Shown here one piece after another: positions 1 through 19,431 of a DNA stretch of 64,000 bases. The notes beneath the pieces are model-generated. The model was not told the DNA's origin. It made no database searches and worked only from the letters and a program-made list of their open reading frames with translations. The stretch is from Sorangium aterium. Lineage in GTDB: Bacteria; Myxococcota_A; Polyangia; Polyangiales; Polyangiaceae. The stretch's first letter is position 1, and each line of letters opens with the position of its first letter. The stretch spans positions 62,001 to 126,000 of the forward strand of contig NZ_JAQNDK010000006.1 in assembly GCF_028368935.1 (NCBI RefSeq). The letters are read 5' to 3'. The position numbers and the translations under genes are program-made.

Positions 1-1941
1 AGGAATTGGCGTCCCGATCCCGGGCCTGTCGCAGGGCCCGTAGAAGCCCTCGGCGTCGTATCGGGTTACGCGCCCGAATAGCGCTCCCGTCTCACCCACC
101 CAGGGGAGTTGCGCGATCTTGTCCACGGTCGCGATCAGGAAGCAGGGCAGCCGTCGGTAGATCGGTTCGTCCACGGCGACGATCGGCAGCGGTCGGCTTG
201 ACCAGCGACACGACGCGGACGCGCAGTACACATGGAGCCGCTCCGGCTTCTCGTCATCAGGGAGCAGCCGGAAACTCAGCGGCTTGAATACCTGATGGCA
301 CCACGGGCAGCGCTCGATGGGGATCGGCGAGGGGTTCCGGCCAGAGTGCAGCCGGAATGCCAGCGTCTTCTCCCGCGCCGAGTGTGGATTCCGATCTCCC
401 GCCCGGCCCATCCGGTTGGGCGTGGCGGCTTCGCCGACCCAGAGCCCGATCTCGAAGGGCCACGTCCCGAGCCGCGGATCGGCTTCCCGGGCGATCTCCA
501 GCGCGCACATCAGGGCCGCAGCCCGCTCGAGCTGATCGAGCGTGAGCAGCCTCAGCGTGTAGCGCATCAGCACGCTCACCCCGGCCCCTCGCACGCCCGG
601 ATGCCGAAGGCGCCGGTACACCAGCGTGAACGCGGCAAGGCCTAGGTACGCCTCCGTCTTCCCGCCGCCCGTCGGGAAAAACAGCAGGTCCACGTCCCTG
701 CGCGTCGTACCCTGTGGATGGACGATTCCGGGCACGTTCATCAGCACGAACGCGAGCTGGAACGGGTACCACGCCGGCGTCACCGTGGGCCGCCGGGCGC
801 GCGCCACCTGGGCCATCACCCGGCAGGTGATTCGCAGCGCCGCGTCGGCCCTCTCGTCCACGAGCGCCGCGATCCCCTCTGCGATGCGCCCCTGCACGCA
901 GCGGGCGTCGCGCAGCAGCTGTTCCAGCATGTGCCGCTGGGCCTCATCTGCGAGGCGCGCCGCAGCCTGCTGCTCGATCCACGCCTTGTAGGCATCGGCG
1001 ATCGGCGAGAGCGCTGCGCGCAGATCTGGCACACTCGCGAGCGCCTCCATGCGAGCATCGAGCCCCTCGAGCGTAGCAGGCACCACCCGCTCGACCTCGG
1101 CACTCGGGATCCACACGGTCTCGACCTGCCGGCAAACCCCATCCGCGTCCAGGCGAGCCGCCGTGGCCACGTTGTGGCCGACCGCATGCTCAACCGCGTC
1201 GCGGTACTGGAGCTCGGCCACCTGCTCGTCCGCATCGACATTATCGCTCCCATCGTCGCGGCCGCGCAGGTTGGGCCTCGCCGTCAGTCCCTCCTTGCAA
1301 TGGAGAGCGAGCGCCGCCTGGAAGGCGAAGGCCGCGTCGCGCGGCGACCCCGGCGGACGCCGGTTGACGAGGAACACGGAGACGGTGAGCCCGTCCCCGT
1401 CGGCGCGGCGCCGGCTCAGCACGACGAGAGTGAGCCCGCTCTCGTCTGCCTCCAGAGGGTAGGACTGCAGCGAGCCGGCCGGGTCGACGAGGAGTTCGCG
1501 CGTGACCTCCCGGGGCGCCCGGCGCCAGGGCCGTGCGACGGGCCGCGTCTCGTCGGCCTCCTCGGAGCAGGATGGGGTAGTTTGACAATCCGGTGGAGCC
1601 TCAGGTGCGTAGTCCCCCCACGTGGCCGTAACCCGGAGGTTGCGCACCGACGACGGCACGAGAACGCTGAGCCCGAGCGATGCAGGAAGCAGCACGCGCC
1701 GACGCGACGTGGGATCCGGCGCGCGGGCGTCGGCGGCCCGGGGATCATCCCCGATCTCGTCCGGCTCCTCCTGCGCCTCGGGATCGACGCGGTCCCCCTC
1801 GTCCCCCTCGAACGGGACGAGGAAGCCGGTGAGATACCAGCGGGACGGCGGAATTGCGAGGCGCTCGTCCGGCACGGCCGGCCCCACGAGGTCCTCGCGG
1901 AGGATCTCCACAAGACGCTCGCGTACGTCCACAGGCTCCAC
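1..1941 (-). CDS. drmA: DISARM helicase-like protein DrmA, partial at 3' end
   Basis: The first 647 codons are visible before the window edge. The start is GTG at 1941, chosen because GGGAGGA lies about 8 bases upstream and no ATG is nearby. The protein has an N-terminal region of about 400 residues, then a Walker A motif PTGGGKTEAYLG with its Lys at residue 428, then VLMRYTLRLLTLDQLERA, a stretch characteristic of DrmA. A CPWC pair followed by CASASC looks like a zinc-binding knuckle. DrmA belongs to the phage-DNA recognition complex (DrmA-DrmB) of DISARM. It is the third gene of a minus-strand operon after drmD and drmMI, the class 1 order; drmB and drmC would lie left of the window. The family call comes from motifs and context. 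Confidence 0.85.
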   Translation of the reverse strand, partial: MEPVDVRERLVEILREDLVGPAVPDERLAIPPSRWYLTGFLVPFEGDEGDRVDPEAQEEPDEIGDDPRAADARAPDPTSRRRVLLPASLGLSVLVPSSVRNLRVTATWGDYAPEAPPDCQTTPSCSEEADETRPVARPWRRAPREVTRELLVDPAGSLQSYPLEADESGLTLVVLSRRRADGDGLTVSVFLVNRRPPGSPRDAAFAFQAALALHCKEGLTARPNLRGRDDGSDNVDADEQVAELQYRDAVEHAVGHNVATAARLDADGVCRQVETVWIPSAEVERVVPATLEGLDARMEALASVPDLRAALSPIADAYKAWIEQQAAARLADEAQRHMLEQLLRDARCVQGRIAEGIAALVDERADAALRITCRVMAQVARARRPTVTPAWYPFQLAFVLMNVPGIVHPQGTTRRDVDLLFFPTGGGKTEAYLGLAAFTLVYRRLRHPGVRGAGVSVLMRYTLRLLTLDQLERAAALMCALEIAREADPRLGTWPFEIGLWVGEAATPNRMGRAGDRNPHSAREKTLAFRLHSGRNPSPIPIERCPWCHQVFKPLSFRLLPDDEKPERLHVYCASASCRWSSRPLPIVAVDEPIYRRLPCFLIATVDKIAQLPWVGETGALFGRVTRYDAEGFYGPCDRPGIGTPIP

Positions 1942-2287
1942 GGCGCGTTCCTCCCTTCTCCCGACCCACCGTCAGGAGCGTACAGTCGGGGTCGGCGAGA
2001 ATACGCGATTGGCGAGCGGAAATATATGGCCGCGACGTGCTCCAGCGGAGAATGAGGTAAATGTCGGTCCGGGAGAGACTTCTGCGAGGAGGTGGGTGGA
2101 AAACCTAGGACTCCGACACAGTTCTGAACCACCGACGTGCTCGGATTCAGCCGTTTTAAAGCGGCACCGGGCGACAGGAGGGAGCAACAGGACCGCGGTG
2201 CGTAGCAACAAGCGGGGGGTGCGGCACTACTGGAGGAGCATTTGAGCAGACGGAACAAAGCGGCCGAGCGGAACTGCACCCGAGAGA
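1942..2287. other. Gap between drmMI and drmA
   Basis: This 346-base spacer is less GC-rich than its surroundings. Reading frames in it are short and lack a convincing ribosome site. It is long for an operon spacer, so it may hold a separate promoter for drmA or the remains of a small gene. I see no definite element. Confidence 0.4.
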
Positions 2288-5200
2288 TCAACGGGTCTTC
2301 TTCGGTGAGGGCACGCCAGCGACACGCTGGGTGGCGGCACAGTCGGCGGCGGCGCGCTCTTGGTTGAGGGCGAGAAGCCGGGCGACGACTTCGTCGCGGA
2401 CGTCGTCGGGCCAGCGATAACGCCAAGGCTTCTTCTTGCGCGGCCGTCCGGCTGACTCGGGCTCATCATCATCGTCATCATCATAGTCAAGGAGAAAAGC
2501 GCACGTGGGGCGAATCTCAGTCCACCCATAAGCGTCAAGAACTGCACGATCCATGATATCGTGAAGTTCGCGAAGCCTCTTAATATCAGGCTCCTCTTCC
2601 TCAGGATCGTGAAAGCGGTTATATGTAGTAGTGAGACCCTGCTGGTTCCTGATCATCAGAGCTGCCCGGTACTCGTAGTAGCACCTGCCCGCCTCGTCGA
2701 TGGCAAGATTATGCTCCCAGCCAGGAGGAAACGCGAACGTCTCAAAGCAATCAGTAGGTGTATAACGAAGTCGATCCTCCAGAGACGATCCAAAGAACCG
2801 CGCCCAAAACTCGTGCAATCGCGACTGAATCACCGCAAACGCGCCATAGCTACACAACGAAAATACATCCAGCTGCTCGGAAAACACCTGCTTCGAGTCC
2901 ACGATTGCAACAGCAAAGTGCTGCGATACGCGCCCAATAACGATCACCTTGTCTTGACGAGCCAGCACCGCACTAAGGCCTGGACGAACCTCTCCGTACT
3001 GCCACCATCGAACTCGATGCGCACCTCTATTTGCAACATCTCGACGAGGCTTGACCTTATTACGAACAATGGTCATCAAGTCGGGCCAAGCGTTTGCCTC
3101 TTCCTCCGTTGCGGTTCCAAAATTGATTACATAGCGATGTGCCGCATGGGTAGGACTTGAGTTGACTTCGTCCCCTCCGAGATAGGAAAATATCTTCTCT
3201 TTGTTGCGGCGATCTTTTACGATCAATCGCTTCATCTCAGAGGTGGGGTTCGCATCCTGGTCAAGATCATCAAACAGAAAGCCTTGGCCCGCTATCTTGT
3301 AACCTTCAAACACTAAGCCACTGCTAGCACGAAGTCGAGCGGGCTCCTCGCTACTGCCGTGTCGGAACAAGTATGCCGTAATCTGATCTGCGCAAATGTC
3401 GTCGATTGTCTTTTTGGCGACCGTGGCATGTTTTGCCAAATGAATTATACTAACTGTTACGGCGGCCCGTCCAGGCCACTTAAGCCGACGACGAGCTCCG
3501 TATATAATGCCTCCGTTTCTGCATATCCAGCCCAGTCCACCTGCTCGCGTGTCCCCTTGGGCAATCGTCTTAGTTGCCACCAGTCCCATGCACGCGCCGC
3601 TTCGTAACTTGTCAAAAGAGCGCCTAAAGAAATAGGCGGCCAGATCCATTCGGTTTCCCGACTCGGGAAAATAATTTGTTATGAATCTGAAGTACTCATC
3701 GGTAATGTTGGTGGATATCATCGTTCCACCCAAAAATGGTGGATTCCCTACGATGGCGTCAAACCCTGGGCTGTTTCTTGAAAACACCTCGGGAAACTCG
3801 ATTTCCCAGTGAAATGGCTTAAATTGCAGGTCCGGCTCAGGCAGCTTCCCAACATCCAACACCAGCCGCTTCGCGTAGTCGTCCAGTCGGTTCACCCGCG
3901 CCTTCTCCTTCGTCTCGGAGAAGAACACCTCCACGACTAGATCGCCAACCCTCCGCACTGCAGCCACGGCGTGATCTGCGTCCCCCAGAAGCCGCTCCTT
4001 TTCCTTCGTGTCATCTGAGTCGGCTAGCTGATGGATCTGCTCCCGCAGCGCCTCTGCCCTCTTCAGCGCCTCGTCGATCCCCTTTCGTAGGAGCGGCACC
4101 TGTGCCTGCTTTCCTGGCGCCCAGTGCAAGCTCGCGATCTGCTCCCGATCCAGGCCCACCAGCGAATCGCCTTCCCGTAGCGCATGGTCCAGGAACGTGA
4201 ACGGATGCTCCCTCGCCAGCGTCACCAGCCACAAGGACAGCTTCGCCAGCGCCACGGCGAACGGGTTCTTGTCTACGCCGTACAGGCACCGCTGCGTCAC
4301 CAGCCGCTGCGCGTGCAGTTCCTCCGTCTCGTCCGGCGGGATGACCGGCCGATCCTCCGGGTAGCGTTTCCAGGCCTCCTCCAGCGCTGCCCCGAGCTGA
4401 CGGCATGCCTCCACCAGGAATGCCCCCGATCCCATGGCCGGATCGCACACCTTGAGGGTCAGAACATCCGATGCCCGGTAGCGCTCGGGGAGCCGCGCCA
4501 GAACGGGCTCTAGCGTCTTGCGTACGATCGGCTCGGTCAGCTCCCGCGGCGTGTAATGGGAGCCTGAGCGCCGGCGCTCCTCGGTCGGCTGCAAGTACAA
4601 GGACCCAGGCGGTAGCACGCCGGGGCGATGCGGAGACGCGCTCTTTGACAGCGCCTGCGCTAGCGCCTCCACCGTCCTGGCCTTCTTGATGTCGGCGGCC
4701 ACCGCGGCGCCAGGCTTGCAACCGACCTCACTAAGGTCCTTCAGACGATCCTCGGGCTTCTTCTTGAGCAGCGTCGCGAGATCCACCGCCGCGTGATGCG
4801 GCTTGACCAGGAGCGTCGGGCCAGACGCCTGCTCCAGCGTGTAGCCCATCATGGCCTCGTACACGCTGCCGATCTGCTCCACGTCCAGGGTCCGGTACGA
4901 AATGCGTTCGCCGTCGAGGAAGAGGAGCTTGTGAAGGACGCGGAATACTACACCATCGGCGACGCTCGGGGGGTCGATGCGCTCGAACCTGCCGCGGGTG
5001 CTGAGATAGGGTCGGCCCTCGAGAAAGGGGTAGGCGTCGGGGTCGAATAGGTCGCCGAGGCGGGCCGGAAGGCGCAGGGCCTTGTACCGCGCGCCGAAGA
5101 AAATCATGGAGAAGAGCGAAACGAGCTGGGCCCAGGCGCCGTAACGCTGATCCATTGTGTCGTGGAATCGCGCATCGTCGTCCCGTAGGCGCTCATACAA

Positions 5201-6211
5201 TCCCGTCGGGGAGTAGCTGCCCGTGAAGATCGGATCGTCCGGCAAGAGGCCCTTGTCCTCGGTATAGAGCAGGAAGACGAGCCGCAGGATCGTGGCCAGG
5301 AGGCCGCCGTAGAGGTGCGGCCGATCTTCGACGAGTTCCCGGGCCATGAGCCTGTCCCCGCCGAGGGATCGCGCCGACTGGAAGCCGACGAGTAGATCCT
5401 GGAGGGCGCTGAGGACTTGATCGGCCAGCTTGCTGGAGACCTCGTTTTGGTAGCGGCGGCTCTCGCGGAGGATCGCGGGAAGCCGGTGCTCCTGAGGACC
5501 CATGAGCAGGCCAGGGCCGAGGAGCATTACCATCGCGCCGAGGACGTCGCGTCCCGCGGTCCGGGTCAGCACCCGCACGGGAAACGTGAGGTGACCGGCG
5601 GTCTCGGTGCGCGGGGCGTAAACGAGGCGGATAGCGCGGGTGTGGACGAGCAGGCCGATCGGAATGTCGCGCTCGCGCAGGAGGCGCTCGAAGCGGGCCT
5701 CAGAGCTCGCGGCCCAGCGCCGGCCCACCTCCGAAAGGGGACGATCGAGATCGGTGCCGGGTGGCTCGACGCGCACGAGGACAAGGGGCGTGGGAGGGGA
5801 TCCGTCCGCGGGAGGCGTGTCGAGCAGGGCGTAGGTGGGCTCAAGGCGATCATCGCCGAAATTGTCGAGGCGGACGACCAGCTCGGGCAGCGGGGGACCG
5901 CCATGCATACCTGCGATGCGGTCGCGTGGCCATTCGAACAGATCGGTGAAGAGCGCCGAAATGTCGGCGATCTGCGGATCGGCATCGTCCCCCGCATTGC
6001 GCTGGGCGCGCTCGGCCTTACGGGTCGTCTGCCCGGCCAAGTCGGGCACCAACGCCAGGAAGCGCTGGTGAAGCTCGGCGAGCACGTTGCGGTCGAAGTA
6101 GGCCTGGGCGCGCACCAGTGCCTGCGCGGTGACGACAAGGCCGACGTGCTCCGCGGTAAGCTCGCCGATCCAGCCTTTATGAAATGAAAGGAGTTCCTTC
6201 TCGGTGGCCAT
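2288..6211 (-). CDS. drmMI: DISARM N6-adenine methyltransferase DrmMI
   Basis: A 1307-residue protein of the Eco57I/PglX-like adenine methyltransferase group. The SAM-binding motif I is DPAMGSGAFL (Asp at residue 590) and the catalytic motif IV is NPPF (Asn at residue 823). About 300 residues precede the methylase core and may be a nuclease-like or structural domain; about 480 residues after NPPF should hold target recognition. The start at 6211 lies 7 bases after the drmD stop, with a weak GGAAG upstream; the frame is open further upstream to 6364 but that part lies inside drmD. In DISARM this enzyme marks host DNA so that it is not attacked. DNA from about 2440 to 3740, coding for the C-terminal third, looks clearly more AT-rich than the rest. 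A second homologue lies at 33517-36906. Confidence 0.88.
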   Translation of the reverse strand: MATEKELLSFHKGWIGELTAEHVGLVVTAQALVRAQAYFDRNVLAELHQRFLALVPDLAGQTTRKAERAQRNAGDDADPQIADISALFTDLFEWPRDRIAGMHGGPPLPELVVRLDNFGDDRLEPTYALLDTPPADGSPPTPLVLVRVEPPGTDLDRPLSEVGRRWAASSEARFERLLRERDIPIGLLVHTRAIRLVYAPRTETAGHLTFPVRVLTRTAGRDVLGAMVMLLGPGLLMGPQEHRLPAILRESRRYQNEVSSKLADQVLSALQDLLVGFQSARSLGGDRLMARELVEDRPHLYGGLLATILRLVFLLYTEDKGLLPDDPIFTGSYSPTGLYERLRDDDARFHDTMDQRYGAWAQLVSLFSMIFFGARYKALRLPARLGDLFDPDAYPFLEGRPYLSTRGRFERIDPPSVADGVVFRVLHKLLFLDGERISYRTLDVEQIGSVYEAMMGYTLEQASGPTLLVKPHHAAVDLATLLKKKPEDRLKDLSEVGCKPGAAVAADIKKARTVEALAQALSKSASPHRPGVLPPGSLYLQPTEERRRSGSHYTPRELTEPIVRKTLEPVLARLPERYRASDVLTLKVCDPAMGSGAFLVEACRQLGAALEEAWKRYPEDRPVIPPDETEELHAQRLVTQRCLYGVDKNPFAVALAKLSLWLVTLAREHPFTFLDHALREGDSLVGLDREQIASLHWAPGKQAQVPLLRKGIDEALKRAEALREQIHQLADSDDTKEKERLLGDADHAVAAVRRVGDLVVEVFFSETKEKARVNRLDDYAKRLVLDVGKLPEPDLQFKPFHWEIEFPEVFSRNSPGFDAIVGNPPFLGGTMISTNITDEYFRFITNYFPESGNRMDLAAYFFRRSFDKLRSGACMGLVATKTIAQGDTRAGGLGWICRNGGIIYGARRRLKWPGRAAVTVSIIHLAKHATVAKKTIDDICADQITAYLFRHGSSEEPARLRASSGLVFEGYKIAGQGFLFDDLDQDANPTSEMKRLIVKDRRNKEKIFSYLGGDEVNSSPTHAAHRYVINFGTATEEEANAWPDLMTIVRNKVKPRRDVANRGAHRVRWWQYGEVRPGLSAVLARQDKVIVIGRVSQHFAVAIVDSKQVFSEQLDVFSLCSYGAFAVIQSRLHEFWARFFGSSLEDRLRYTPTDCFETFAFPPGWEHNLAIDEAGRCYYEYRAALMIRNQQGLTTTYNRFHDPEEEEPDIKRLRELHDIMDRAVLDAYGWTEIRPTCAFLLDYDDDDDDEPESAGRPRKKKPWRYRWPDDVRDEVVARLLALNQERAAADCAATQRVAGVPSPKKTR

Positions 6212-6218
6212 GGACTTC

Positions 6219-9200
6219 CTAACCGGACTGGGGCCAGAGGTAGACGAGGCCGACGGCCTCATGGCGGGTGGAGCGGACGTGGTAGTGCTCTCGGATGCGC
6301 GCCGCCTCGGCGAGTGCCTGCGGCTCGAGCTCGACGAGGCGGCGATCCCAGTAGGCGAGATCATCTAGAATCTGATCGCGTTCATCCTCGGCAAAACCGA
6401 GGAGGAGCTGGTCTCCGCCCCCGATACCGTACCGCTTCTTCAGCTCAGCGCGGTGGCGCGCGAGGCGCTTCGCTTGATCGGTGACGATCTTCACGAGCGC
6501 GGTGGCCTCCTTTTTTCCGCGCTCGGCGAGGAGGCGGTCGGCCTGCCGCTGCTGCTCGTCTAGGCGGCGCTTGAGGCGCGGGCCAAGCGCTTCGAGGTGG
6601 GCGGGGACGCTGGGGAGGAAGGTACGGCGTGCCCAATCGAGATCGACGTCGCGCAGTGCAGGGTCGGCGAGCGCCTCGCGTACGAGGGCAAGTGGCTCGG
6701 CGGGATCGTCCAGGATCGTAAGCGGCTCCCGGCCGTCGAGGCCTCCGACACGGCCTGCGACGGCCGTGATCTCGTTGTGGAGGCGCGCGGCCTCCCGGCC
6801 GTAAAGGGCGACCCGGCCGAACAGTATCGCGTAGGGGACGGCGGCGCGCGTACGGAGGACGCAAGCTCGGTGCAGGTCGTGGTGCACGAATCCCTGGGCG
6901 GAGAAGCGGGCGAGGAGGCGGCGGACCAGCGGGTGCTCGAGGTGGAGGTGAACGACGCCAGCGCCGAGCTTGCCAGGATCCTCGAAGACGACGGAACGGA
7001 GAGACGTGCGGCGGCGCCAGTCCCAGAGGGCCTCGGACGGCTCCCGGGGAGGCCGGAGGAGATCGAGGAGGGGGAGCCAGCTCGGGTCGACCGCGGCGCG
7101 AGCGGCGAGATCAGGGAAGCGATAGGCGCCCCGTAGATCATTCGCTGTGACTGGCTCAAGCTGCCCCGCGCCGAGCAGACCGAGTGCGGCGTCGACTGCG
7201 CGGCGGAGACGGTCCCCCTCGTAATCCAGGTGCCTGCGGGCGCGCTCGAGCAACTCGCGCAGGTCTGCGAGTTCAGCCGCAAGCTGCCGCGGGCGACGCG
7301 CTGCTTCCAGCTCTTCGCGGCGAGCGGCGGCGCGGGACGGCTCCTCGCCGAGTTGCTCGATCGCCGCGCGGAGATCGGCAACCCGGCCAAGTGGGACACC
7401 GCGCTCGAGGAGGGCGGCGAGGCGGCCCTCGACGACGGCGCCGATGCTACCGAGCTCCTTCTGGATGGTGCGGGTCTTGTTGACTATGGTCTCGAGGACT
7501 TGGTCCTCGGGTCTCTGCGTGAAGACGAAGTAATGGCAGCGGACTTCCGGGGCACGCTGAAGGGTGCGATCGATGCGACCGTTGCGCTGCTCGACGCGGG
7601 AGGGGTTCCACGGCAGGTCGAAGTGGAACAGGTCTGCGCAGTGGTTCTGGAGGTTGACGCCTTCGCGGGCGGCGTCGGTGCAGACGAGGATACGCAGTGG
7701 CTCGACGCGCGGATCGGCATTGAAGGCTTCCTTGATCTCCTCGCGCACCTCGTCGGAGATTCCCCCATGAAACGTGCGGATACGCGATCGCACGCGCTCG
7801 GGCTCGCAGATCGCGGTCCGGAGCTGTTGATAGACGTAATCCTTGGTGTCCGCGTACTCGGTAAAGATGAGGACGCGGCGATCGGTCCACGCCTTCGGCG
7901 CGGTACGGACCGGCGCGTCGAGCGGGGCGAGGTCGGGGCAGAGGTGCTCGCGGATCCAGTCGATGAGCTTGCGGATGCGCTCGTCGGGCGCCGTGCGGTG
8001 CCGCTGCGCGATCTCCTGCATGCGGTCGAGGAGGGAGATCTCCTCGGCGGAAGGGACGCTCGGATCGGCGGCGGTGGCCCGAACGATCTGGGCGTCCTCC
8101 TCGGCGCGGATTGATGCCTCGTCGCGCTCTGCGTCCTCGTCGTCCATGCCCGGCGGCTCGGCGAGGAGCGTAAGCTGCGCGGTCGAGGGCGGTGGTGGGG
8201 ACGGCGTGGCGGCAGTGCGGCGCTGCGTGACGGAGCGGCGGTGGACCTCCAGCGTGCGGGCGAAGGCGTGGATGGAGGAGAGGAGCCGCTTCTGCAGCGA
8301 GGTGACGACCAGCGCCGCGCTGGCCTGCGCTCCCTTAGGGAGCGCTGCGAGGCGCGTCTCGCGCAGCTCGCGGTAGCGCCCGAGCAGGCGCGAGAGCTCG
8401 AGCTCGGGAGCGTTGTCCGGGAGACCGGTGATGTCGTGCTGCGGGACGAGCCGCTCGGGGATCTCACCTGGTAGGGCGTCCTTGAGGTCTCGCTTGAGCC
8501 GACGGACGACGACGGCGTCGCGATCCCTGGGATCGATGGGCGCGCCGCGGCAGAAGCGCGTGTCGTCCAGGATCTCGAGCAGCGCCGAGAAGCTATTGGA
8601 GTGGCCGTTGTGCGGGGTTGCCGAGAGGAAGAGGCGGTGCTCGAAGCGGCCGGCGAGATCGCGGATGACACGGGTGAAGCGGGAGTCGACCGCGTATTTG
8701 GCGCCCGAGGAGGGGGCCGCATGATGCGCCTCGTCGAGGATGAGGAGGGACCCGGCGCGAGCGCCGCCCCCCGGCTCGCCCTCGCTACCTAGCAGAGCGC
8801 GGAGGAGGCCGGCGTAGGCCTCGTCGCGCAGCAGCGCATGGGAGACGACGAAGAGCTGGTGGGTCGCCCAGGGGTTCGTGGCGTGGCCTCGCTCTCGGCG
8901 GACGCGGAGGACGTAAGCGCGGTCAAGGACGCGGAAGGCGAGGCCGAAGCGGGTGGCAAGCTCGTCCCGCCACTGGAGGACGACCGAAGGCGGGCAGGCG
9001 ACCACGACGCGGCGGACACGCTGGCGCAGGAGGAGTTCGCGAAGGATGAGGCCGGCCTCGATGGTCTTGCCGAGGCCAACATCATCGGCGATGAGGAGGT
9101 TGACCCGCGGAAGGAGCAGGGCCTTACGGAGCGGCTCGAGCTGGTGAGCCTTGATTGAGATGCCGGCGCGGTATGGGGCCTGGAAGAGCTGCGGATCTGT

Positions 9201-9488
9201 GGAGGTGACGGAGCTCCAGCGCAGCGTGTCGAGGTAAGCGGCGAACAGGTCCGGGCGATCGAAGCCGTCAACGCGGCCAGCTTCGAAGGCGTCGGTCTTC
9301 AGGATGGTGCCGTCGAGCTCGCGTTCCCAGAGGACCTCGAGGGTAGCGCCCGCTGCGTCGTCGTCGACGCAGGCGAGCGTGACGGCCGTGTCCTCATCGT
9401 CGACGCGCTGGACCTTCTCGACGAGGTAGCGCCGGGCGCGGACGCGGACGAACTGGCCTTCTTGAGGGGGTGCTGCGGGCTTTTCCAT
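6219..9488 (-). CDS. drmD: DISARM SNF2-like helicase DrmD
   Basis: About 1089 residues, a superfamily 2 SNF2-like ATPase. Visible motifs are Walker A DVGLGKTIEAG (Lys at residue 141), DEAH in LLILDEAHHAAP, motif III SATPHNGH, and the C-terminal motifs AREGVNLQN and RVEQRNGRIDR. A long C-terminal part beyond the helicase core ends at VYLWPQSG. DrmD defines class 1 DISARM and is the promoter-proximal gene here, followed within 7 bases by drmMI. The start is uncertain: ATG at 9488 fits the conserved N-terminus (QFVRVRARRYLVE soon after), but the frame stays open to a GTG at 9566, and neither has a strong ribosome site. Confidence 0.85.
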   Translation of the reverse strand: MEKPAAPPQEGQFVRVRARRYLVEKVQRVDDEDTAVTLACVDDDAAGATLEVLWERELDGTILKTDAFEAGRVDGFDRPDLFAAYLDTLRWSSVTSTDPQLFQAPYRAGISIKAHQLEPLRKALLLPRVNLLIADDVGLGKTIEAGLILRELLLRQRVRRVVVACPPSVVLQWRDELATRFGLAFRVLDRAYVLRVRRERGHATNPWATHQLFVVSHALLRDEAYAGLLRALLGSEGEPGGGARAGSLLILDEAHHAAPSSGAKYAVDSRFTRVIRDLAGRFEHRLFLSATPHNGHSNSFSALLEILDDTRFCRGAPIDPRDRDAVVVRRLKRDLKDALPGEIPERLVPQHDITGLPDNAPELELSRLLGRYRELRETRLAALPKGAQASAALVVTSLQKRLLSSIHAFARTLEVHRRSVTQRRTAATPSPPPPSTAQLTLLAEPPGMDDEDAERDEASIRAEEDAQIVRATAADPSVPSAEEISLLDRMQEIAQRHRTAPDERIRKLIDWIREHLCPDLAPLDAPVRTAPKAWTDRRVLIFTEYADTKDYVYQQLRTAICEPERVRSRIRTFHGGISDEVREEIKEAFNADPRVEPLRILVCTDAAREGVNLQNHCADLFHFDLPWNPSRVEQRNGRIDRTLQRAPEVRCHYFVFTQRPEDQVLETIVNKTRTIQKELGSIGAVVEGRLAALLERGVPLGRVADLRAAIEQLGEEPSRAAARREELEAARRPRQLAAELADLRELLERARRHLDYEGDRLRRAVDAALGLLGAGQLEPVTANDLRGAYRFPDLAARAAVDPSWLPLLDLLRPPREPSEALWDWRRRTSLRSVVFEDPGKLGAGVVHLHLEHPLVRRLLARFSAQGFVHHDLHRACVLRTRAAVPYAILFGRVALYGREAARLHNEITAVAGRVGGLDGREPLTILDDPAEPLALVREALADPALRDVDLDWARRTFLPSVPAHLEALGPRLKRRLDEQQRQADRLLAERGKKEATALVKIVTDQAKRLARHRAELKKRYGIGGGDQLLLGFAEDERDQILDDLAYWDRRLVELEPQALAEAARIREHYHVRSTRHEAVGLVYLWPQSG

Positions 9489-10186
9489 CGGCTCAGGGCC
9501 GATGTATCGCACGAGGACGACGACTTGGGAACGAGGGTCGACCCTAGGCGAAGGCGGTACCCGCACTTTTCTGGTGGCTGCTCCCTGTTCGCCGCTTCCT
9601 CCCGCGCCCTGCCAGGTGAGGGGCCCGCGAAAATTGGACCCCCCTTCGACCTCGATGTGCGTCGTTGCCTACGGCAGGTCGCGGCCAAGGTGCACTGCCT
9701 GGCCGGAGCCGCATCGGTGACACCTCGAGAAGACACGGACGGGCCATGGCGTGATGCTACCGTCCCCGCCCCTCGTTGCGATGGATGAATTGAACTATCT
9801 CTTCGCGCACGCACCGCCACGCCGTCCTCGCCTTGTAGGGCGCGACTGCGGCTGGTAGAGCAGCGATGTACAGGTGTCGCGGCGGCGCCCATGCGCACGG
9901 CAATCATTAACCCACTCGTGTTCTATCGGTTAATGTTGTACGTGGGCCGTGGATGTCCGGTACATCGTCGATTGCCCTCGGGGAGACGTGCCGAGGAACA
10001 GGCCCCGCGCACACCTTGGCGCTTGCCTCCCCGGCACAGGCCTGCCGCCTGGCGACGTCGCTTTCTCGAAGGCCTCGGGGGCGCTTTCGCACGCATACAT
10101 CGCGCGTGGGCGATCTCAGCAGAGTCTGCAGGCGCCGGCGAGTGGCAGGCCCGGCGGCGACTCAGCGCGATCGGCGAGCTCGACTA
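9489..10186. other. Upstream region of the DISARM operon, no gene seen
   Basis: About 700 bases that should contain the DISARM promoter. All open frames look like chance frames of high-GC DNA. A patch near 9890-9950 is richer in A and T and could be promoter DNA, but no clear -35/-10 pair could be assigned. Confidence 0.4.
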
Positions 10187-10432: not shown

Positions 10433-10513
10433 GTCCCCCCGAAAGCCCGGCCGAACCCACGGATCGCGACGGTTCGCCCCCGCGGAATTGTCCCGCCAGA
10501 GAAGCCGGTCGAT
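10204..10513. repeat. Dispersed ~310 bp element, copy A
   Basis: This stretch aligns nearly end to end with 19721-20026, by eye about 80 percent identical, including an 18-base identical block GGATCGCGACGGTTCGCC upstream of the small ORF. The copies are direct repeats about 9.5 kb apart. Similarity covers both the ORF and its upstream DNA, so the whole unit was copied, not just a gene. Confidence 0.75.
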
Positions 10514-10825
10514 AGCGAGTGGTCGCTGGAAACAGTAGCGATTTTCGTAGTTTCCGCCTGTTTCGCCGCTGAGGGCGGCTCCGGTGTGGCCCAACGCGGC
10601 GCCCTCTTCCGCCGCATCGCCCGCGGTGAAGGGCCCGCGGCATCACCGATCGGGGTCGGCGCCTGGCCTGGCGCCGAAGCGGGCGCGCGCGTCGAAGCAG
10701 GCCCAGCTGGCTGCCGCGGTGCCGGTGGCTGGGGATCGCGCCGAACATCGCCGCGGTGCTGCGCGGCGAGAAGGCTCCCGACGACGCGCTGGCCCGCGAG
10801 CTGGGCGCGATGGGGCTCCTCTGCG
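10514..10825. other. Non-coding or decayed stretch
   Basis: No intact gene. On the plus strand from about 10730 to 10855 a frame reads GIAPNIAAVLRGEKAPDD followed by ALARELGAMGLL and a stop. It looks like the C-terminus of a real protein whose front is missing, but I could not identify it. Confidence 0.3.
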
Positions 10826-11383
10826 TCAGCGCGCGCGCCGGTAGTGCATCGCCACCGCGCCGCAGCGGAGCGGCTTGGCCGAGACCAGCTCGAGCCGCCG
10901 CGTGACGGGCAGCCCGCTCTGGTACAGGGTCGGGCCGTGGCCGGCGAGCTTGGGGTGGACGAGGAACTTGTACTCGTCGATGAGATCCAGCCGATCCAGC
11001 TCGGTCGCGAGCTTGCCGCTGCCGAGGAGCACGCCGGCCGGGGTCGCGTCCTTGAGCTTCTGCACGCCCATGCGCAGATCGCCGGCGATGGGGTGGCTGT
11101 TGGTCCACGGGAAGTCCTTGCGCGTGGACGACACCACGTACTTCGGCTTGGTCTCCAGCTTGACCGCCCACTCGCGCAGCGCCGGAGGCGCCTCCTCGTC
11201 GCCGCGGGCGACCGCCGGCCAGTAGCTCTCCATCATCTCGTAGGTGACGCGGCCCCACAGCATCGCGCCGCTCTCGTCCATGAGGCGGGTGAAGAAGGCG
11301 TGCGTCTCGTCGTCGACGATCCCCTCCTGGTGGTCGACGCAGCCGTCCAGGGTGACGTTGATGGAGAAGGTCAGCAGTCCCAT
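10826..11383 (-). CDS. RibD C-terminal/dihydrofolate-reductase-like protein
   Basis: 185 residues. The start at 11383 is preceded by GAAGGAGA and the protein begins MGLLTFSINVTLDGCVDH, the usual opening of the RibD C-terminal (DHFR-fold) family of NAD(P)H-dependent reductases. Later blocks agree: MLWGRVTYEMMESYWP, YVVSSTRKDFPW, and a C-terminal region with LLGSGKLATELDRLDLIDEY and KLAGHGPTLY. Members are cytosolic single-domain proteins, usually of unknown substrate and often called deaminase-reductase family protein. The gene stands alone; the neighbouring TetR gene is divergent and 364 bases away. Confidence 0.85.
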   Translation of the reverse strand: MGLLTFSINVTLDGCVDHQEGIVDDETHAFFTRLMDESGAMLWGRVTYEMMESYWPAVARGDEEAPPALREWAVKLETKPKYVVSSTRKDFPWTNSHPIAGDLRMGVQKLKDATPAGVLLGSGKLATELDRLDLIDEYKFLVHPKLAGHGPTLYQSGLPVTRRLELVSAKPLRCGAVAMHYRRAR

Positions 11384-11502
11384 GCGGCGAGTCTCCTTCG
11401 GAACGAGGCATCGGTCAATGTTGCGGTAGTGCCATGCGCACCGCGAGGCTCTCGGCTTTGTCGTCTCGCAAGACTCTCGAGTCCGTGGTGTCGAAAAGCA
11501 CG

Positions 11503-11551
11503 TCGTGATGGCTCGGTCCTGGGTCGAAAGAGCGTGGTCCGGGCGCCGCCA
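11503..11551. repeat. 49 bp repeat, solo copy
   Basis: Matches 15549-15597 at nearly every base, sharing the core CTGGGTCGAAAGAGCGTGGT, in direct orientation. The other copy lies just beyond the 3' end of the IS91-type transposase remnant, so this solo copy may be an orphan end of the same element. The rest of the 364-base gap between the reductase and TetR genes shows nothing definite. Confidence 0.6.
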
Positions 11552-11747
11552 CGCATCGCCCAGGCCCTGGCGAGCATCGCGGCCAAGTAGGTCGCCCTCA
11601 TCGCCCAGGGTCAATCCACGTAAACGCCGTCGCATAGCGCACATCGACGGCCGAGAGCGTCGCCCGCGCGGTCTCGTTCAGCGCGCCGTCGGGCTGCCTC
11701 CGGGTCGCGAGGAGCTGCCAGAGGCTAGCTGTGCTAGCCTGACGGCG

Positions 11748-12296
11748 ATGGCCGACGTCAAGGATAAGTTGCTCGCCGTAGCGTACCGGGTACTCGAGAG
11801 CGAAGGCCCAGCAGCGCTCACGACGCGGCGGGTGTGCGAGGAGGCCGGCGTGACGATGCCGACCCTCTACCACCACTTCGGCAGCCGGGACGGGCTCGTG
11901 GCTGCGGTCCACGCCGTCGCGCTCGAGAAGTTCATGGCGAAGAAACGGGCGCTCACGCCGACAGACGACCCCGTCGCGGATCTCCGCACGGGCTGCGAGC
12001 ACGTGCTCGAATTCGTGCAGGCCCACCCCTCCGTCACGGCCGCGTTGATGGCGCGCGGCATCGAGCAGCCGTCGATATTCGAGCCGAGCTACGCCCTGAT
12101 GCGGCACCGCCTCGAGCGTTGCGCCAGGGCGGGCGCCCTGCGCGTGCCGATCGAGCGCGCTGCCGAGCACGTCTGGGCCGTCGTCCAGGGCCTCGCGCTG
12201 AGCATCGTCGCCAGCCCTTCCGGCGCACCACCGAGCCGCGCCACCTCGGCGGGGGCGCTCGACGCGGTGTTCCAAGCGATCGCCGACCAATTGTAG
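11748..12296 (+). CDS. TetR-family transcriptional regulator
   Basis: 182 residues starting MADVKDKLLAVAYRVLE. The helix-turn-helix is TTRRVCEEAGVTMPTLYHHF followed by GSRDGLVAAV, typical of TetR repressors; the rest should be the ligand-binding and dimerisation domain. The stop codon lies inside a 48-base tandem repeat (12293-12340) that looks like an operator, and the next gene, an NAD-dependent epimerase, starts 84 bases downstream on the same strand. The simplest reading is local control of that gene, and perhaps of itself, in response to an unknown small molecule. Confidence 0.85.
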   Translation: MADVKDKLLAVAYRVLESEGPAALTTRRVCEEAGVTMPTLYHHFGSRDGLVAAVHAVALEKFMAKKRALTPTDDPVADLRTGCEHVLEFVQAHPSVTAALMARGIEQPSIFEPSYALMRHRLERCARAGALRVPIERAAEHVWAVVQGLALSIVASPSGAPPSRATSAGALDAVFQAIADQL

Positions 12297-12340
12297 CGCC
12301 GCTATAGACAATACGTGTAGCGATGCTATAGATGATCCTG
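12293..12340 (+). promoter_or_regulatory. Tandem 24 bp repeat, candidate TetR operator/promoter
   Basis: Two adjacent 24-base units of the form GTAGCGNNGCTATAGA, at 12293-12316 and 12317-12340. CTATAG is a self-complementary core in each, so the cores sit 24 bases apart. The AT-rich TATAGA could also act as a -10 element. The repeat lies between the TetR gene end and the epimerase start. Confidence 0.5.
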
Positions 12341-12380
12341 GATGGCGCGCCGGAGCGGGCCCGAACAGGAGAGATTCGTC

Positions 12381-13400
12381 ATGGCAGAGACCGTGTTCGT
12401 CACCGGAGGCAGCGGCTTCGTGGGCCGCGCCATCGTCCGTGCGCTCATCGCGCGTGAGTACCGCGTCCGTGCCCTCGCGCGAAGCGCCGCCAGCGCTGCC
12501 AAGCTCGCCGCTCTCGGCGCCGAGCCCGTCCGCGGCGACCTCCACGACGCCGCCGCGCTCACCGAGGGCTGCATGGGCGCCGCGGTCGTGGTGCACGCGG
12601 CCGCGTCCCTCACCTCGGCCCTGCGCTGGGGCGAGCACGCCCGCACCAACGTCGAGGGCACCGGCGGCTTGCTCGCAGCGGCGCGCGCGGCCGGCGTCCG
12701 CCGCTTCATCTACCTCGGGGCTGCGTCGGTTGTCATCGAGGGCTCTCGGCCGAGCGAAGGGGAGGAGGACGCTCTCCCGCCCAGGGTCGATCGCTCCTTG
12801 CCGTACAGCGCGACGAAAGCGCTCGCCGAGGCGATGGTGCTCGAGGCAGACAGCCCCGCGATGCGCACCGTGAGCCTCCGCCCACCGATGATCTGGGGCC
12901 CGGACGCGCCGACCCTCGACATCATCGCGGAGGCCTTCCGCGCCGGGCGCTTCGCCTACGTCGGCGGGGGCAAACACCTCTACAGCGTCGCCCACGTCGA
13001 CAATGTCGCCGAAGCGGTGAGCTGCGCAGTGCGCAGTGACGTCGGCGGGCGCGCGTATTTCGTGACCGACGACGAGGTCACGCCGATGCGCACCTTCTTG
13101 ACGGAGCTCATGGCGACGCGCGGCGTGGACGCGAAGGCCTGGTCCGTACCCCTCCCCCTGGCGGTGCTGTTCGGGTGGCTCCTCACCAACCTCTTCGGGT
13201 GGTTCGCGCCGCGACGGCGCCCACCGCTCACCCTCGAGGACGTGCGGCTCCTCGGGCAAACGCTTCACCTCTCGTCTGCTCGGGCGAAGAAGGAGATTGG
13301 CTACCGCGCCGTGCGGAGCCGCGCGGAAGGCCTCGCCGCGCTCCGGGCCCATGGCAGCGCCGTTCGGCGGAGCGGCGAGAGCCCCGCGCTCGCGCATTGA
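12381..13400 (+). CDS. NAD-dependent epimerase/dehydratase (extended SDR)
   Basis: 339 residues. The start at 12381 has CAGGAGAG upstream and gives the Rossmann motif VFVTGGSGFVGRAI at once. The catalytic YxxxK is YSATK. Other landmarks are GDLHDAAALTEGC and the substrate-side RPPMIWGP. The C-terminal part has a hydrophobic LAVLFGWLLTNLFGWF stretch, as in 3-beta-hydroxysteroid-dehydrogenase-like SDRs, which may attach it to the membrane. The substrate cannot be read from the sequence. Probably regulated by the TetR protein encoded just upstream. Confidence 0.85.
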   Translation: MAETVFVTGGSGFVGRAIVRALIAREYRVRALARSAASAAKLAALGAEPVRGDLHDAAALTEGCMGAAVVVHAAASLTSALRWGEHARTNVEGTGGLLAAARAAGVRRFIYLGAASVVIEGSRPSEGEEDALPPRVDRSLPYSATKALAEAMVLEADSPAMRTVSLRPPMIWGPDAPTLDIIAEAFRAGRFAYVGGGKHLYSVAHVDNVAEAVSCAVRSDVGGRAYFVTDDEVTPMRTFLTELMATRGVDAKAWSVPLPLAVLFGWLLTNLFGWFAPRRRPPLTLEDVRLLGQTLHLSSARAKKEIGYRAVRSRAEGLAALRAHGSAVRRSGESPALAH

Positions 13401-13467
13401 GGCGCGGTCGGTGCCTGTACTGGTTCTCCGTGAGGGTGACAGCGGCTGGCAGAGAAGAAGAGAGAAG

Positions 13468-14226
13468 ATGGAGAAGGCAAGAGGGCGCACGGTGGCGAGA
13501 GCGAGCTGCCATCGCGCCGAGGAGAATGCCACCGCGCTCGCTTCGGGCAACGTCGCGCCCTCGCCATCCTCGCGGTGCTCGGCAAGCGCCTGCGGGCGGC
13601 TGCGGGCGGCTGCGGGCGCTCGGTTGCCCTGCATTGCGCGCGGCGGCCCCGCGACAGCGCTCCGGCGCTCGCTCGCCGGCGCCGCGCTGGCAGGCGCGCT
13701 CGCCTGGGGCTCCCCCGCCCGCGCCGCGGAGACGCAGAGCCTCGCCGAGGCGGGGATAAGCCCCAACCTCGCCTGGGCCGCGTCGCAGCTCATTCCGAGC
13801 CCCACCTGGCACCTCTACGCCGACGACACGCGCTTCGGCCTGCGCTGGCAGCTCACCCCGCTGCTCTACTCCTTCGGCAGAAATCGGAGGCTGTCTCCCT
13901 GGCGCAGCCTCCTCGCCGAGCCGCTCGCGCGGCATGCCGGAGCGCTCGAGATCCATGTCACGCCCGAATACCTCTTCTCCGGCGCCGGCATCGAAGATCA
14001 CGTGCAGCTGACTGGCGGCGTGCGCGCCTACTTCCCCCTGCTCCACCGCGGAGAGTACCTCTCCTGCTCGCTCGGCGGCTCCGCCTTCACGCTCGGCGGC
14101 GAGGTCGCGGCGGCGTACGAGGCCGGCCTCTACACGCTCTTTGGTGTCATCGGCGTGCAGGTCGCCTACTCTCCGACGCGCGCGCTGCGCGGGACCACGT
14201 TGACGCTCAACCTCAGGTACTTCTGA
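13468..14226 (+). CDS. Exported protein, probable outer-membrane beta-barrel
   Basis: About 252 residues, family not recognised. A hydrophobic signal-like segment (SLAGAALAGALAWG then SPARAAET) ends in an AxA cleavage site. It lies about 75 residues in from the ATG at 13468, so a later start such as TTG at 13622 may be the real one. The mature part is rich in aromatic residues and alternating patterns and ends in LTLNLRYF; a terminal Phe is typical of outer-membrane barrels. The stop is 4 bases before the next gene, so the two are likely cotranscribed. Confidence 0.6.
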   Translation: MEKARGRTVARASCHRAEENATALASGNVAPSPSSRCSASACGRLRAAAGARLPCIARGGPATALRRSLAGAALAGALAWGSPARAAETQSLAEAGISPNLAWAASQLIPSPTWHLYADDTRFGLRWQLTPLLYSFGRNRRLSPWRSLLAEPLARHAGALEIHVTPEYLFSGAGIEDHVQLTGGVRAYFPLLHRGEYLSCSLGGSAFTLGGEVAAAYEAGLYTLFGVIGVQVAYSPTRALRGTTLTLNLRYF

Positions 14227-14230
14227 CCCC

Positions 14231-15172
14231 ATGCTCCGCGCAGCAAGCACCACCGCTCTCATGGCGCTCCTCGCCGCCTCGGCGCTGTCCTGCAACAGCA
14301 TGCCGGGACGCGTCCTGTCAGGCAACACGGGCGCGCTGTTCGGCGGCCCGGCGCCCGTCGCCAACAAGGTGCGAGAGCCCTACCGCAAAGACGCGCGCCT
14401 GGCCGTCCTCTGGGTCGGCCACGCGACGGCGCTCGTCCAGATCGACGACAAGCAGATCCTCACGGATCCGGTCTTCACCTCGACCGTGGGCCTCCTCTCC
14501 GCGCGGCTCGTCGAGCCGGGCCTGGACCCGGAGCACGTGCCGCCCCTCTCGGCGGTGCTGGTCTCGCACACGCACTTCGATCACCTGTCGCTCGGCTCGC
14601 TCGAGATGATCGAGGGGAAGACACCGGTGCTCTTTGTCCCCCGCGGCGCCCTCCCCTACGTGCCCGATTTCGCGTTCGACACGATCGAGCTCTCCACGTG
14701 GCAGCGCTGGGAGCACGACGGGCTGCGGATCACCGCCGTCCCGGTGAAGCACGGGGGAGGCCGCTACGGAGTCGACATCGCCCTCGGCTGGGGTGGATTC
14801 ACGGGGTACGTCGTGGAATATCATGGGGTCACCGTCTACTTCGGCGGGGACACCGCTTACGATCGCAAGGTGTTCACGGAGACGCGGGCGCGGTTCCCCG
14901 CGATCGATCTCGCGCTGATGCCGATCGCGCCGATCGGGCCGCGCGATTTCATGCACTCGCGCCACGTGGACCCGGCAGAGGCGCTAGAGGCCTGCGAAGA
15001 TATGGGCGCGAAATGGGTGGTGCCGATCCACTTCGACACGTTCATCAACTCCTCGGACGAGCCCGGCCAGGCGGTCTCCGAGCTCAAGCGCGTGATGGCG
15101 GCCCGGCGGATCGCGCCTGGGAAGGTCCACATCCTCGCGCCGGGAGAGCAACGGATCTTGCTCGGCCGCTAG
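14231..15172 (+). CDS. Metallo-beta-lactamase-fold hydrolase, lipoprotein
   Basis: 313 residues. A signal peptide ends in the lipobox-like ALSC, so the enzyme is probably membrane-anchored. The metal site is HTHFDH (residues 113-118), with GGDTAYD and VPIHFDTF as later ligands. The layout matches the UlaG/NAPE-PLD-like branch (beta-lactamase superfamily, L-ascorbate-6-phosphate lactonase or N-acylphosphatidylethanolamine phospholipase D relatives). Coupled to the exported protein upstream by a 4-base gap. The substrate is unknown; a lipid or lactone is plausible. Confidence 0.85.
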   Translation: MLRAASTTALMALLAASALSCNSMPGRVLSGNTGALFGGPAPVANKVREPYRKDARLAVLWVGHATALVQIDDKQILTDPVFTSTVGLLSARLVEPGLDPEHVPPLSAVLVSHTHFDHLSLGSLEMIEGKTPVLFVPRGALPYVPDFAFDTIELSTWQRWEHDGLRITAVPVKHGGGRYGVDIALGWGGFTGYVVEYHGVTVYFGGDTAYDRKVFTETRARFPAIDLALMPIAPIGPRDFMHSRHVDPAEALEACEDMGAKWVVPIHFDTFINSSDEPGQAVSELKRVMAARRIAPGKVHILAPGEQRILLGR

Positions 15173-15198
15173 GATCGAGCGCCGGAGGGAGGTCGCTC

Positions 15199-15342
15199 CT
15201 ACGCGCTCGCGAACGGCAACGCGACGCTGAACGTCGTCCCGACATCGAGCTCGATCCGGACGTCGATCATTCCGCCATACAGCGTGACGAGCCGCTCGAC
15301 CATGCACAGGCCCAGGCCCGTGCCGGAGCCCTGCCTCCACCA
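15199..15342 (-). pseudogene. Histidine kinase C-terminal fragment
   Basis: The frame reads GSGTGLGLCMVERLVTLYGG and ends TTFSVALPFASA before a stop. These are the G2 box and final strands of a HATPase_c domain. Nothing upstream in any frame continues the kinase, so only the last ~48 codons remain. The DNA beyond is an IS91-type remnant, suggesting the rest was lost by insertion or deletion. Confidence 0.7.
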
Positions 15343-15548
15343 TCGTGCTCGCCCCGCACCACGCTCGGCAGTCACCCCGGCGGCTTGCACCTCGCGTCTC
15401 CACCCCGCCCTTCGCCGAACCCATCTCGCAGCCTCGTTCCCGCGCCGCGTTCTGAATTGACGCTGTACGCCGTAGCGCGTAGGCAAATCAAGCCGGATCG
15501 CATCGCAAGGAAGTGTAGCGCGGCAGAGCGAAAGGGTGGGACCGCGAG

Positions 15549-15597
15549 CGTCGTGATGCCTCGGTCCTGGGTCGAAAGAGCGTGGTTCGGGCGGCGC
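15549..15597. repeat. 49 bp repeat next to IS91-type remnant
   Basis: Direct-repeat partner of 11503-11551. It lies just outside the C-terminal coding end of the transposase remnant, where an IS91 element would carry one of its ends. Confidence 0.6.
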
Positions 15598-15639
15598 CGC
15601 GCGCGCTAAGAGGCGCATCGGCGTGCCGTGGGCATACGT

Positions 15640-17138: not shown

Positions 17139-17140
17139 CG

Positions 17141-17560: not shown

Positions 17561-17749
17561 ACGTCCCCTCGCTTCCTGATTGCGTCCAGCGAGCTATCAG
17601 CGGGGGGGCGGCGCGGCAAGCTGCGAGCACGTGCGGGGTCGCGAGCCGCGCGCACGGCGAAGATGCGAGCTCGCATGGGCTCCTGGCGGAAAGGTGATGC
17701 GGGGAGCGAGCTCATCTCAAGCGGCTCCTCGCTGCGCTCCTCCGGCGCA

Positions 17750-17908
17750 ATGGTAGTCTATCGGAACACCTCGGAGAGCGCGGGGGTGGCTCCGCTCGCG
17801 GAGGGCTCGGGGCCGCTCGCGGCGGCGTCACGGGCTCGCGAGGCGGGGACCGATCTCTCGTTCTACGAGGTCGTCCTCGTGGACGAGCTCGAGACCCCGA
17901 TCGCCGGC
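17750..17908 (+). pseudogene. 5' fragment of an unidentified gene
   Basis: From an ATG at 17750 the frame contains FYEVVLVDELETPIAGV, a phrase like the start of carboxypeptidase-regulatory-like or Ig-like segments in myxobacterial secretion-associated proteins. Protein-like sequence stops near 17908, exactly where the primase fragment on the other strand begins, so this is a junction between two broken genes. Identification is weak. Confidence 0.4.
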
Positions 17909-19307: not shown

Positions 19308-19431
19308 CCCGGGGCAGCGCGCCTCGGAAGATCCAGGCGCGCTGCCGGCACCTCGCCGCGACGTCGTTCCCGAGGAGCGCATGCTCGCGCAGATCGTGAG
19401 CTGGCCCCCTGAGACGGTTCGTACGATGCTG

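What the first reader, a model, noticed from the sequence alone, without database searches (positions are those of the whole stretch)
1..9488. Class 1 DISARM anti-phage operon at the window edge
Three adjacent same-strand genes show the diagnostic order drmD, drmMI, drmA, with SNF2-helicase, adenine-methylase (DPAMGSGAFL, NPPF) and DrmA (PTGGGKTEAYLG, VLMRYTLRLLT) motifs. The drmD-drmMI gap is 7 bases; the drmMI-drmA gap is 346.
Basis: partly seen in the sequence, partly recalled or inferred. Interest (0 to 1): 0.6.

Follow-up and report, generated by a model that had tools for sequence, protein, structure and literature searches.

The report
Complete class 1 DISARM phage-defence operon
This is an intact five-gene bacterial defence operon of a known kind (class 1 DISARM) against viruses; its unusual feature is that the part of its methylase that reads the DNA site looks imported, and a related pair of operons shows that this part can be swapped like a cartridge.

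Summary
Observation and interpretation are both right. Extending the contig left shows the complete operon drmD–drmMI–drmA–drmB–drmC, all on the minus strand, ending about 4.1 kb left of the window edge. DrmD, DrmA, DrmB and DrmC pass NCBIfam cut-offs (DrmC by 1.3 bits) and DrmMI matches PADLOC's DrmMI over nearly its full length. This meets PADLOC's type I definition, except that absence of drmE is only weakly tested. It is a new member of a known kind. Two comparisons add interest. (1) Codons 796–1255 of drmMI (end of the methylase domain plus recognition domain) have GC3 0.52 against 0.82 elsewhere in the gene; drmD, drmA and drmB show no such block. The recognition region drops by 0.10 or more in 24 of 34 relatives. 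Two cyanobacterial plasmid operons 96–98% alike differ by a 973-bp stretch inside drmMI, so this part moves as a cassette; for this locus import is inferred, with no donor found. (2) The 346-base drmMI–drmA gap is the empty form of an interval that exceeds 1 kb in 12 of 15 relatives, with Septu, DarTG or HEC-01A homologues in some. Activity is untested.

The parts
6219..9488 (-). drmD: SNF2/RapA-like helicase, 1,089 aa from ATG 9488
   Evidence: NCBIfam NF038317 1059.8 bits, cut-off 610; PADLOC DrmD PDLC02621 1029.4 bits; the only match over that cut-off among 14 helicase matches in the genome
2288..6211 (-). drmMI: adenine methylase, 1,307 aa, with DPAMGSGAFL and NPPF motifs
   Evidence: PADLOC DrmMI PDLC02643 1187.8 bits, residues 9-1296; Pfam Eco57I, MmeI_Mtase, MmeI_TRD, N6_Mtase above gathering
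2447..3826 (-). low-GC3 block in drmMI (codons 796-1255): end of the methylase domain with NPPF, target-recognition domain and what follows; probably an imported cassette
   Evidence: GC3 0.522 inside against 0.819 outside; likelihood ratio 125.2 against a maximum of 25.9 in 100 shuffles; drmD 14.1, drmA 9.6, drmB 16.1, each within its own shuffles
1942..2287 (-). 346-base gap between drmMI and drmA: an interval that holds extra genes in most relatives sampled, here empty
   Evidence: two stops in the drmA frame, so no N-terminal extension of DrmA; no Rfam match; no sigma-70-like promoter pattern, one terminator-like stem at 2283-2264; relatives
1..1941 (-). drmA (5' 647 codons in the window; the gene continues to C6:60600, 1,113 aa)
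   Evidence: NCBIfam DrmAS NF038325 1112.6 bits, cut-off 950; PDB DrmA 7s9v E 8.4e-167. drmB (C6:58697-60727) and drmC (C6:57870-58829) follow outside the window

Best explanation
A complete, probably functional class 1 DISARM operon. Shown here: five open genes of the right families in the canonical order, with catalytic motifs present. Inferred from published work on the Serratia system: DrmMI puts an N6-methyl mark on adenines at its own site and so labels host DNA; DrmA with DrmB stays inhibited until it meets unmethylated DNA with a 5' single strand, then loads and translocates; DrmC or another nuclease may degrade the DNA. Also inferred: the genes form two modules, drmD-drmMI (7-base gap) and drmA-drmB-drmC (about one base between the drmA stop and the likely drmB ATG), joined at an interval where other genes, some of them defence genes, are often inserted. 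The recognition part of DrmMI can be exchanged as a cassette in this family, and the copy here has a block of foreign base composition, so this host's self mark probably changed after the operon was built.
For: Families and cut-offs. PDB hits at E <= 0.001 were DrmA and DrmB of 7s9v/7s9w for DrmA and DrmB, and MmeI weakly for DrmMI (DrmD and DrmC not searched). Serratia DrmA R1294, V1296 and K803 align with R1094, V1096 and K608 here. DrmB cysteines and the DrmC HKD motif are visible. GC3 block in drmMI. GC3 falls by 0.10 or more in the recognition region in 24 of 34 relatives, and in 1 of 33 for the C-terminal tail; 9 of the 12 relatives chosen through DrmA and 15 of the 22 chosen through the recognition part. 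Natural swap: proteins of L130 and L131 are 96.9 / 55.2 / 97.0% identical in N part / recognition part / tail, with edges at residues ~831 and ~1154 of this DrmMI; L113/L123 give 79.0 / 38.1 / 78.1. PADLOC definition.
Against: No activity is shown. DrmC passes its cut-off by only 1.3 bits. Serratia R810 is a valine here (V615), R659 was not placed, DrmA lacks the first ~130 residues of Serratia DrmA, and the stretch aligned with the trigger loop is shorter. On the cassette: low GC3 in this region is widespread in the family, even in low-GC cyanobacteria, so it may reflect AT-rich recognition domains in general and not a recent import here; the block here also runs on into the tail (0.63 at residues 1215-1300), beyond the swap edges of L130/L131; trees of the two parts place this protein differently, but no well-supported set holds it in either; the best relative of the recognition part is 57% identical, no donor. 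L130 and L131 also differ in the 5' part of drmD and between drmD and drmMI.
Confidence: 0.93

Rival explanations
1. It belongs to another helicase-methylase system of the same kin (ARMADA, BREX or Dpd) and not to DISARM.
For: DrmD also hits HmaA, BrxH and DpdE models, and DrmMI hits type IIG and PglX models. [quoted passage not shown]
Against: Those scores are clearly lower in PADLOC and below cut-off in NCBIfam. DrmB is a separate gene, as described for DISARM and unlike the usual fusion. DrmC is present. No ARMADA model was among those tested by name.
Confidence: 0.02
2. It is DISARM but decayed or silent: a relic without defence function.
For: No expression or methylation data. The 346-base gap could be the scar of a lost accessory gene.
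Against: All five frames are open and match their families over most of their length; motifs present; no stop inside DrmA or DrmD in the genome search.
Confidence: 0.07
3. The low-GC block in drmMI is not foreign: recognition domains simply evolve under weaker codon selection or stronger AT pressure.
For: The drop is seen in 24 of 34 relatives and also in low-GC cyanobacteria. No donor was found.
Against: Edges are sharp; a drop of 0.10 in the tail occurs in 1 of 33 relatives. Some relatives (L111, L112, L067, L069) show little or none. A direct swap exists in L130/L131. At fourfold-degenerate codons the value here falls from 0.83 to 0.49.
Confidence: 0.2

Closest known systems
Class 1 DISARM of Trichormus variabilis ATCC 29413 plasmid C (NC_007412; drmD, drmA and drmC so annotated in the record)
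   Same: the same five kinds of gene in the same order on one strand; DrmA of 1,131 aa, also without the long N-terminal part
   Different: the drmMI-drmA interval holds an AAA ATPase and a DUF4435-like protein, and three genes on the other strand lie between drmD and drmMI; its annotated drmD is shorter than that of the sister plasmid (2,574 against 3,243 bases)
Class 1 DISARM of Serratia sp. SCBI (structures 7s9v/7s9w, PMC9142583)
   Same: DrmA and DrmB homologous over their common length; R1294, V1296, K803 kept
   Different: Serratia DrmA has ~130 more N-terminal residues and a longer trigger-loop stretch; its operon also has a cytosine methylase, and no such gene lies in this operon
Type I, III and IIL restriction-modification enzymes that change specificity by exchange of recognition domains
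   Same: exchange of the recognition part within a conserved methylase; Pfam MmeI_TRD and MmeI_Mtase match DrmMI. Such exchange in R-M systems is described (PMC10273834, passages)
   Different: no D/E-x-K in DrmMI residues 1-317 and none shared by more than 2 of 35 rows in residues 1-300; the exchange alters the self mark of a multi-gene system

Membership tests
DISARM class 1 (PADLOC type I) | DrmA, DrmB, DrmC, DrmD and DrmMI all present together | tested here: met
   definition from PMC9252829, passages
DISARM class 1 (PADLOC type I) | no drmE | tested here: inconclusive
   one DrmE model, PDLC02635, no match in the genome, but no control genome rang either; no further large gene within the operon
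DISARM class 1 (PADLOC type I) | catalytic motifs of helicases, methylase and PLD nuclease | tested here: met
   translations; Pfam domains; DrmMI motifs (motif names recalled)
DISARM class 1 (PADLOC type I) | protection against phage; m6A at a DrmMI site | not testable with these tools
   needs culture and long-read methylation data
DISARM class 1, as described in a preprint | EVE-like domain at the N-terminus of DrmA (PMC12458937, passages) | tested here: not met
   DrmA here aligns from Serratia residue 136 on and has an in-frame stop 11 codons upstream of its GTG. The domain cannot be general: 37 of 49 DrmA N-termini held have under 100 open codons upstream (several loci counted twice)
DISARM class 2 | drmE and drmMII in the operon | tested here: not met
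   no such gene among the operon's ORFs; PDLC02635 negative without a positive control; no DrmMII model was run
ARMADA | YprA helicase with fused OB-CON-DUF1998 region | tested here: not met
   the MZB/DrmB protein is a separate gene
Type IIG/IIL restriction enzyme (MmeI-like) | nuclease active site (D...E-x-K) N-terminal to the methylase | tested here: not met
   no D/E-x-K in residues 1-317 of this DrmMI; in residues 1-300 no column has it in more than 2 of 35 rows; a sequence test, not a structural one

The most novel reading that the evidence does not exclude
Class 1 DISARM is a switchable system: its methylase gene exchanges recognition cassettes between the NPPF motif and a conserved D-C-F-E-T-F block, and the drmMI-drmA junction is a plug-in site for second defences. 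The operon here has an empty plug-in site and an imported cassette, so this lineage changed its self mark within a resident operon. How a cell survives such a change (old marks useless, new marks not yet made) would become a testable question.
Probability: 0.5. Interest if true: 0.5.

Novelty: new member of a known kind. Interest (0 to 1): 0.33.

Why it matters
The wider value lies in the comparison. DISARM has been presented as recognising DNA structure, with methylation as a brake (PMC9142583). If the methylase's recognition part is exchanged while the other genes stay, the brake should not depend on one particular sequence. The Nostoc/Trichormus plasmid pair is a natural pair on which to test this. 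The drmMI-drmA interval is also a place to look for further defence genes.

Tried and rejected
Structure prediction of DrmMI residues 531-1245 with four rows gave mean pLDDT 47 and pTM 0.33 and was not used. The gap before drmA was checked as a lost N-terminal domain in the drmA frame: two stops and no recognisable likeness; rejected. Rfam (gathering), tRNA and promoter scans gave nothing except one terminator-like stem after drmMI. The shuffle part had a bug (a starting value of zero) and is not used; one search is the corrected run. Quick trees of the N part and the recognition part differ (the second joins this protein with L130 at support 92, unstarred), but no starred set holds it in either, so they are not used as proof. 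DrmA has no match in the phage collection, and window 1-9600 no near match in plasmids. Synteny: the right flank (pieces within window 10490-19326) matches one G100 stretch at 95.6-98.6%, the left flank (C6:50045-56756) another, distant one at 74-82%, and the operon matches neither of these two stretches (G100's own DISARM lies elsewhere and was not in that comparison). Paralogues of the left-flank sigma factor make that side unsure, so no insertion site is claimed. Literature: the listings show no report of recognition-domain exchange in DISARM; the founding DISARM paper is not held and preprints are poorly covered, so I do not claim that it is unpublished.
Full report
What is there. The window is G000:C6:62001-126000, in a 13.47 Mb genome of 7 contigs. 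A same-genus genome, G100, is one contig of 14,782,125 bases, which I recall as the size of Sorangium cellulosum So0157-2; the host is therefore probably a Sorangium-like myxobacterium (recalled; no call names it). To the left drmA continues to C6:60600, and drmB and drmC follow on the same strand. By my count on the translations, the likely drmB ATG (residue 44 of the ORF) lies about one base after the drmA stop, and likely drmC starts lie within a few bases of the end of drmB.

What it is. Four proteins exceed NCBIfam cut-offs (DrmD 1059.8/610, DrmA short form 1112.6/950, DrmB 514.8/240, DrmC_I 134.3/133), and DrmMI matches PADLOC's DrmMI along residues 9-1296 with 1187.8 bits. Models of kindred systems score clearly lower (for DrmD the best other system is HmaA with 213 bits, for DrmMI a type IIG model with 531) or stay under cut-off. 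PADLOC's type I definition (PMC9252829, passages) is met as far as tested; the drmE test lacks a positive control. The genome holds one DrmA match and one DrmD over cut-off. Among 108 genomes of the family, this one included, 39 have a DrmA match at E <= 1e-3, five of them with a best E of only 1e-15 or weaker; in the genus it is 3 of 6 with this one, the other two at 60% and 47% identity. So the family is common here and the copies have long diverged.

How it probably works. Bravo et al. (PMC9142583; introduction, results parts 1-2 of 3 and discussion read) propose that DrmAB is held inactive by a trigger loop, loads on unmethylated DNA with a 5' overhang, and is restrained by methylation. 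R1294, V1296 and K803 of Serratia DrmA are kept here (R1094, V1096, K608), R810 is V615, and R659 I could not place with certainty. DrmA here lacks the first ~130 Serratia residues, the region where a preprint places an EVE-like domain (PMC12458937, passages). That lack is usual in the set held: 37 of 49 DrmA N-termini have under 100 open codons upstream, several loci being present twice. The stretch aligned with the trigger loop is shorter than in Serratia. DrmMI has the methylase motifs and an MmeI-type recognition domain. It has no D/E-x-K in residues 1-317, and in residues 1-300 no alignment column has one in more than 2 of 35 rows, so it probably marks and does not cut.

The methylase is a mosaic. 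In 60-codon windows GC3 is 0.75-0.88 up to codon 820 and 0.47-0.65 from there to codon 1260. The best segment is codons 796-1255, 0.52 against 0.82 outside. Its likelihood ratio is 125.2, against at most 25.9 in 100 shuffles; drmD (14.1), drmA (9.6), drmB (16.1) and a second DrmMI-like gene in the window (16.4) lie within their shuffles. At fourfold-degenerate codons the value falls from 0.83 (residues 251-790) to 0.49 (840-1125), so amino-acid content is not the cause. Of 36 relatives found two rows were dropped (L048, apparently the same locus as L043, and the truncated copy in the window). In the other 34, GC3 of the recognition part is lower by at least 0.10 in 24, and not lower in 2; for the tail the fall reaches 0.10 in 1 of 33. 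By origin it is 9 of 12 chosen through DrmA and 15 of 22 chosen through the recognition part, so the choice of relatives does not make the trend. In this protein the tail (residues 1215-1300) is still low, 0.63.

A natural swap. DISARM operons on two plasmids typed as conjugative, AP018182 (L130, Nostoc carneum) and NC_007412 (L131, Trichormus variabilis), align at 95.7-97.6% DNA identity from drmD to drmC, except L131:9092-10064 inside drmMI, where only two pieces of about 85 bases align. Other differences: the first ~670 bases of the L130 drmD CDS have no counterpart in the shorter L131 CDS, the interval between drmD and drmMI differs, and there is a short gap near L131:11669-11718. In protein, N part, recognition part and tail of DrmMI are 96.9, 55.2 and 97.0% identical; the edges fall at residues ~831 and ~1154 of this DrmMI, just after NPPFLGG and at DCFETF. 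L113/L123 give 79.0, 38.1 and 78.1%, L116/L128 63.8, 30.2 and 62.8%; in all 22 pairs printed of 595 the recognition part is less alike than the N part, which fast evolution alone could explain for the distant pairs but not for L130/L131. This is direct evidence that the recognition part can move as a cassette in class 1 DISARM. For the window's own copy the case is compositional: the best relative of the recognition part is 57% identical among 377 genomes of the phylum and 56% among plasmids, and the trees give no well-supported place.

The interval between drmMI and drmA. In 15 distinct loci with both genes in view (11 of the 12 fetched through DrmA hits, and 4 distinct of the 9 genome-contig loci put into) the distance between match ends exceeds 1 kb in 12 (1,986 to 9,215) and is 176-461 in 3. 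At 8-9 kb (L062, L073) it is not certain that both genes belong to one operon. Left out: six further loci with no drmMI match in the held sequence, and L026 and L032 (about 150-163 bases), whose short flanks could show only short intervals. I scanned genes, not all of them, from 10 of the 12 long intervals (L063 and L073 not scanned); 8 of the 10 went to PADLOC, and 5 of these 8 gave strong defence names: PtuA in L062, L066 and L071, with PtuB in L066 (Septu); DarG and DarT in L045; HEC-01A in L036, beside a PIN protein. Pfam shows a Schlafen AlbA_2 protein (L067), a protein kinase and a Fic protein (L068), an HD protein (L072) and weak metallo-beta-lactamase matches (L065, L070). L065 has a transposase-like ORF, and L063 and L073 hold ORFs that look unrelated to defence (read). 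The two cyanobacterial operons have an AAA ATPase and a DUF4435-like protein there (the DUF4435 score, 26, is under Pfam's 27). The interval separates drmD-drmMI from drmA-drmB-drmC; in ARMADA the like helicase-methylase pair stands before or after the YprA helicase (passages), which fits two modules. In this window the interval is empty.

Verdict. Ordinary as a system: a complete class 1 DISARM, a new member of a known kind. The cassette exchange in DrmMI and the insertion interval are the parts worth following. The paper searches (listings, and the passages named) showed no account of either for DISARM, in a library that lacks the founding paper.

Noticed in passing
window 33517-36906 (-): A second DrmMI-like methylase (PADLOC DrmMI 992 bits, 1,129 aa) that lacks about the first 250 residues, 24 kb from the DISARM operon; GC3 0.95, no low-GC block. 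No second DrmA match, and no second DrmD over cut-off, in the genome.
   Followed up: partly
G000:C5:280854-282785 (loci L143, L144): A third, partial DrmMI-like match in the same genome (46% identity over residues 257-696).
   Followed up: no
L130 and L131 (AP018182, NC_007412): DISARM operons 96-98% alike on two cyanobacterial plasmids that differ by a 973-bp stretch in the recognition part of drmMI, and also in the 5' part of drmD.
   Followed up: yes
L045:3268-5147: A DarTG pair (Macro/DarG and DarT) sits between drmMI and drmA of a DISARM operon.
   Followed up: partly
L002:11581-12723 (+), C6:54580-55722: ECF-type sigma factor left of drmC, one of a large paralogous set (41 matches in this genome at E <= 1e-3, itself included; the next three 89, 86 and 76% identical).
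   Followed up: no
L035, L041, L042, L044: Relatives with drmA-drmB-drmC but no drmMI match in the held upstream sequence (2-10 kb). For L035 (G006:C384) a recognition-part match lies about 10 kb upstream of drmA on the same strand, beyond the held stretch, so a very long interval is possible there.
   Followed up: no
PADLOC models PDLC02572 and PDLC02626: Two PADLOC models look mislabelled: one named DrmA matches DrmD here with 581 bits, one named DrmD matches the recognition part of DrmMI.
   Followed up: no
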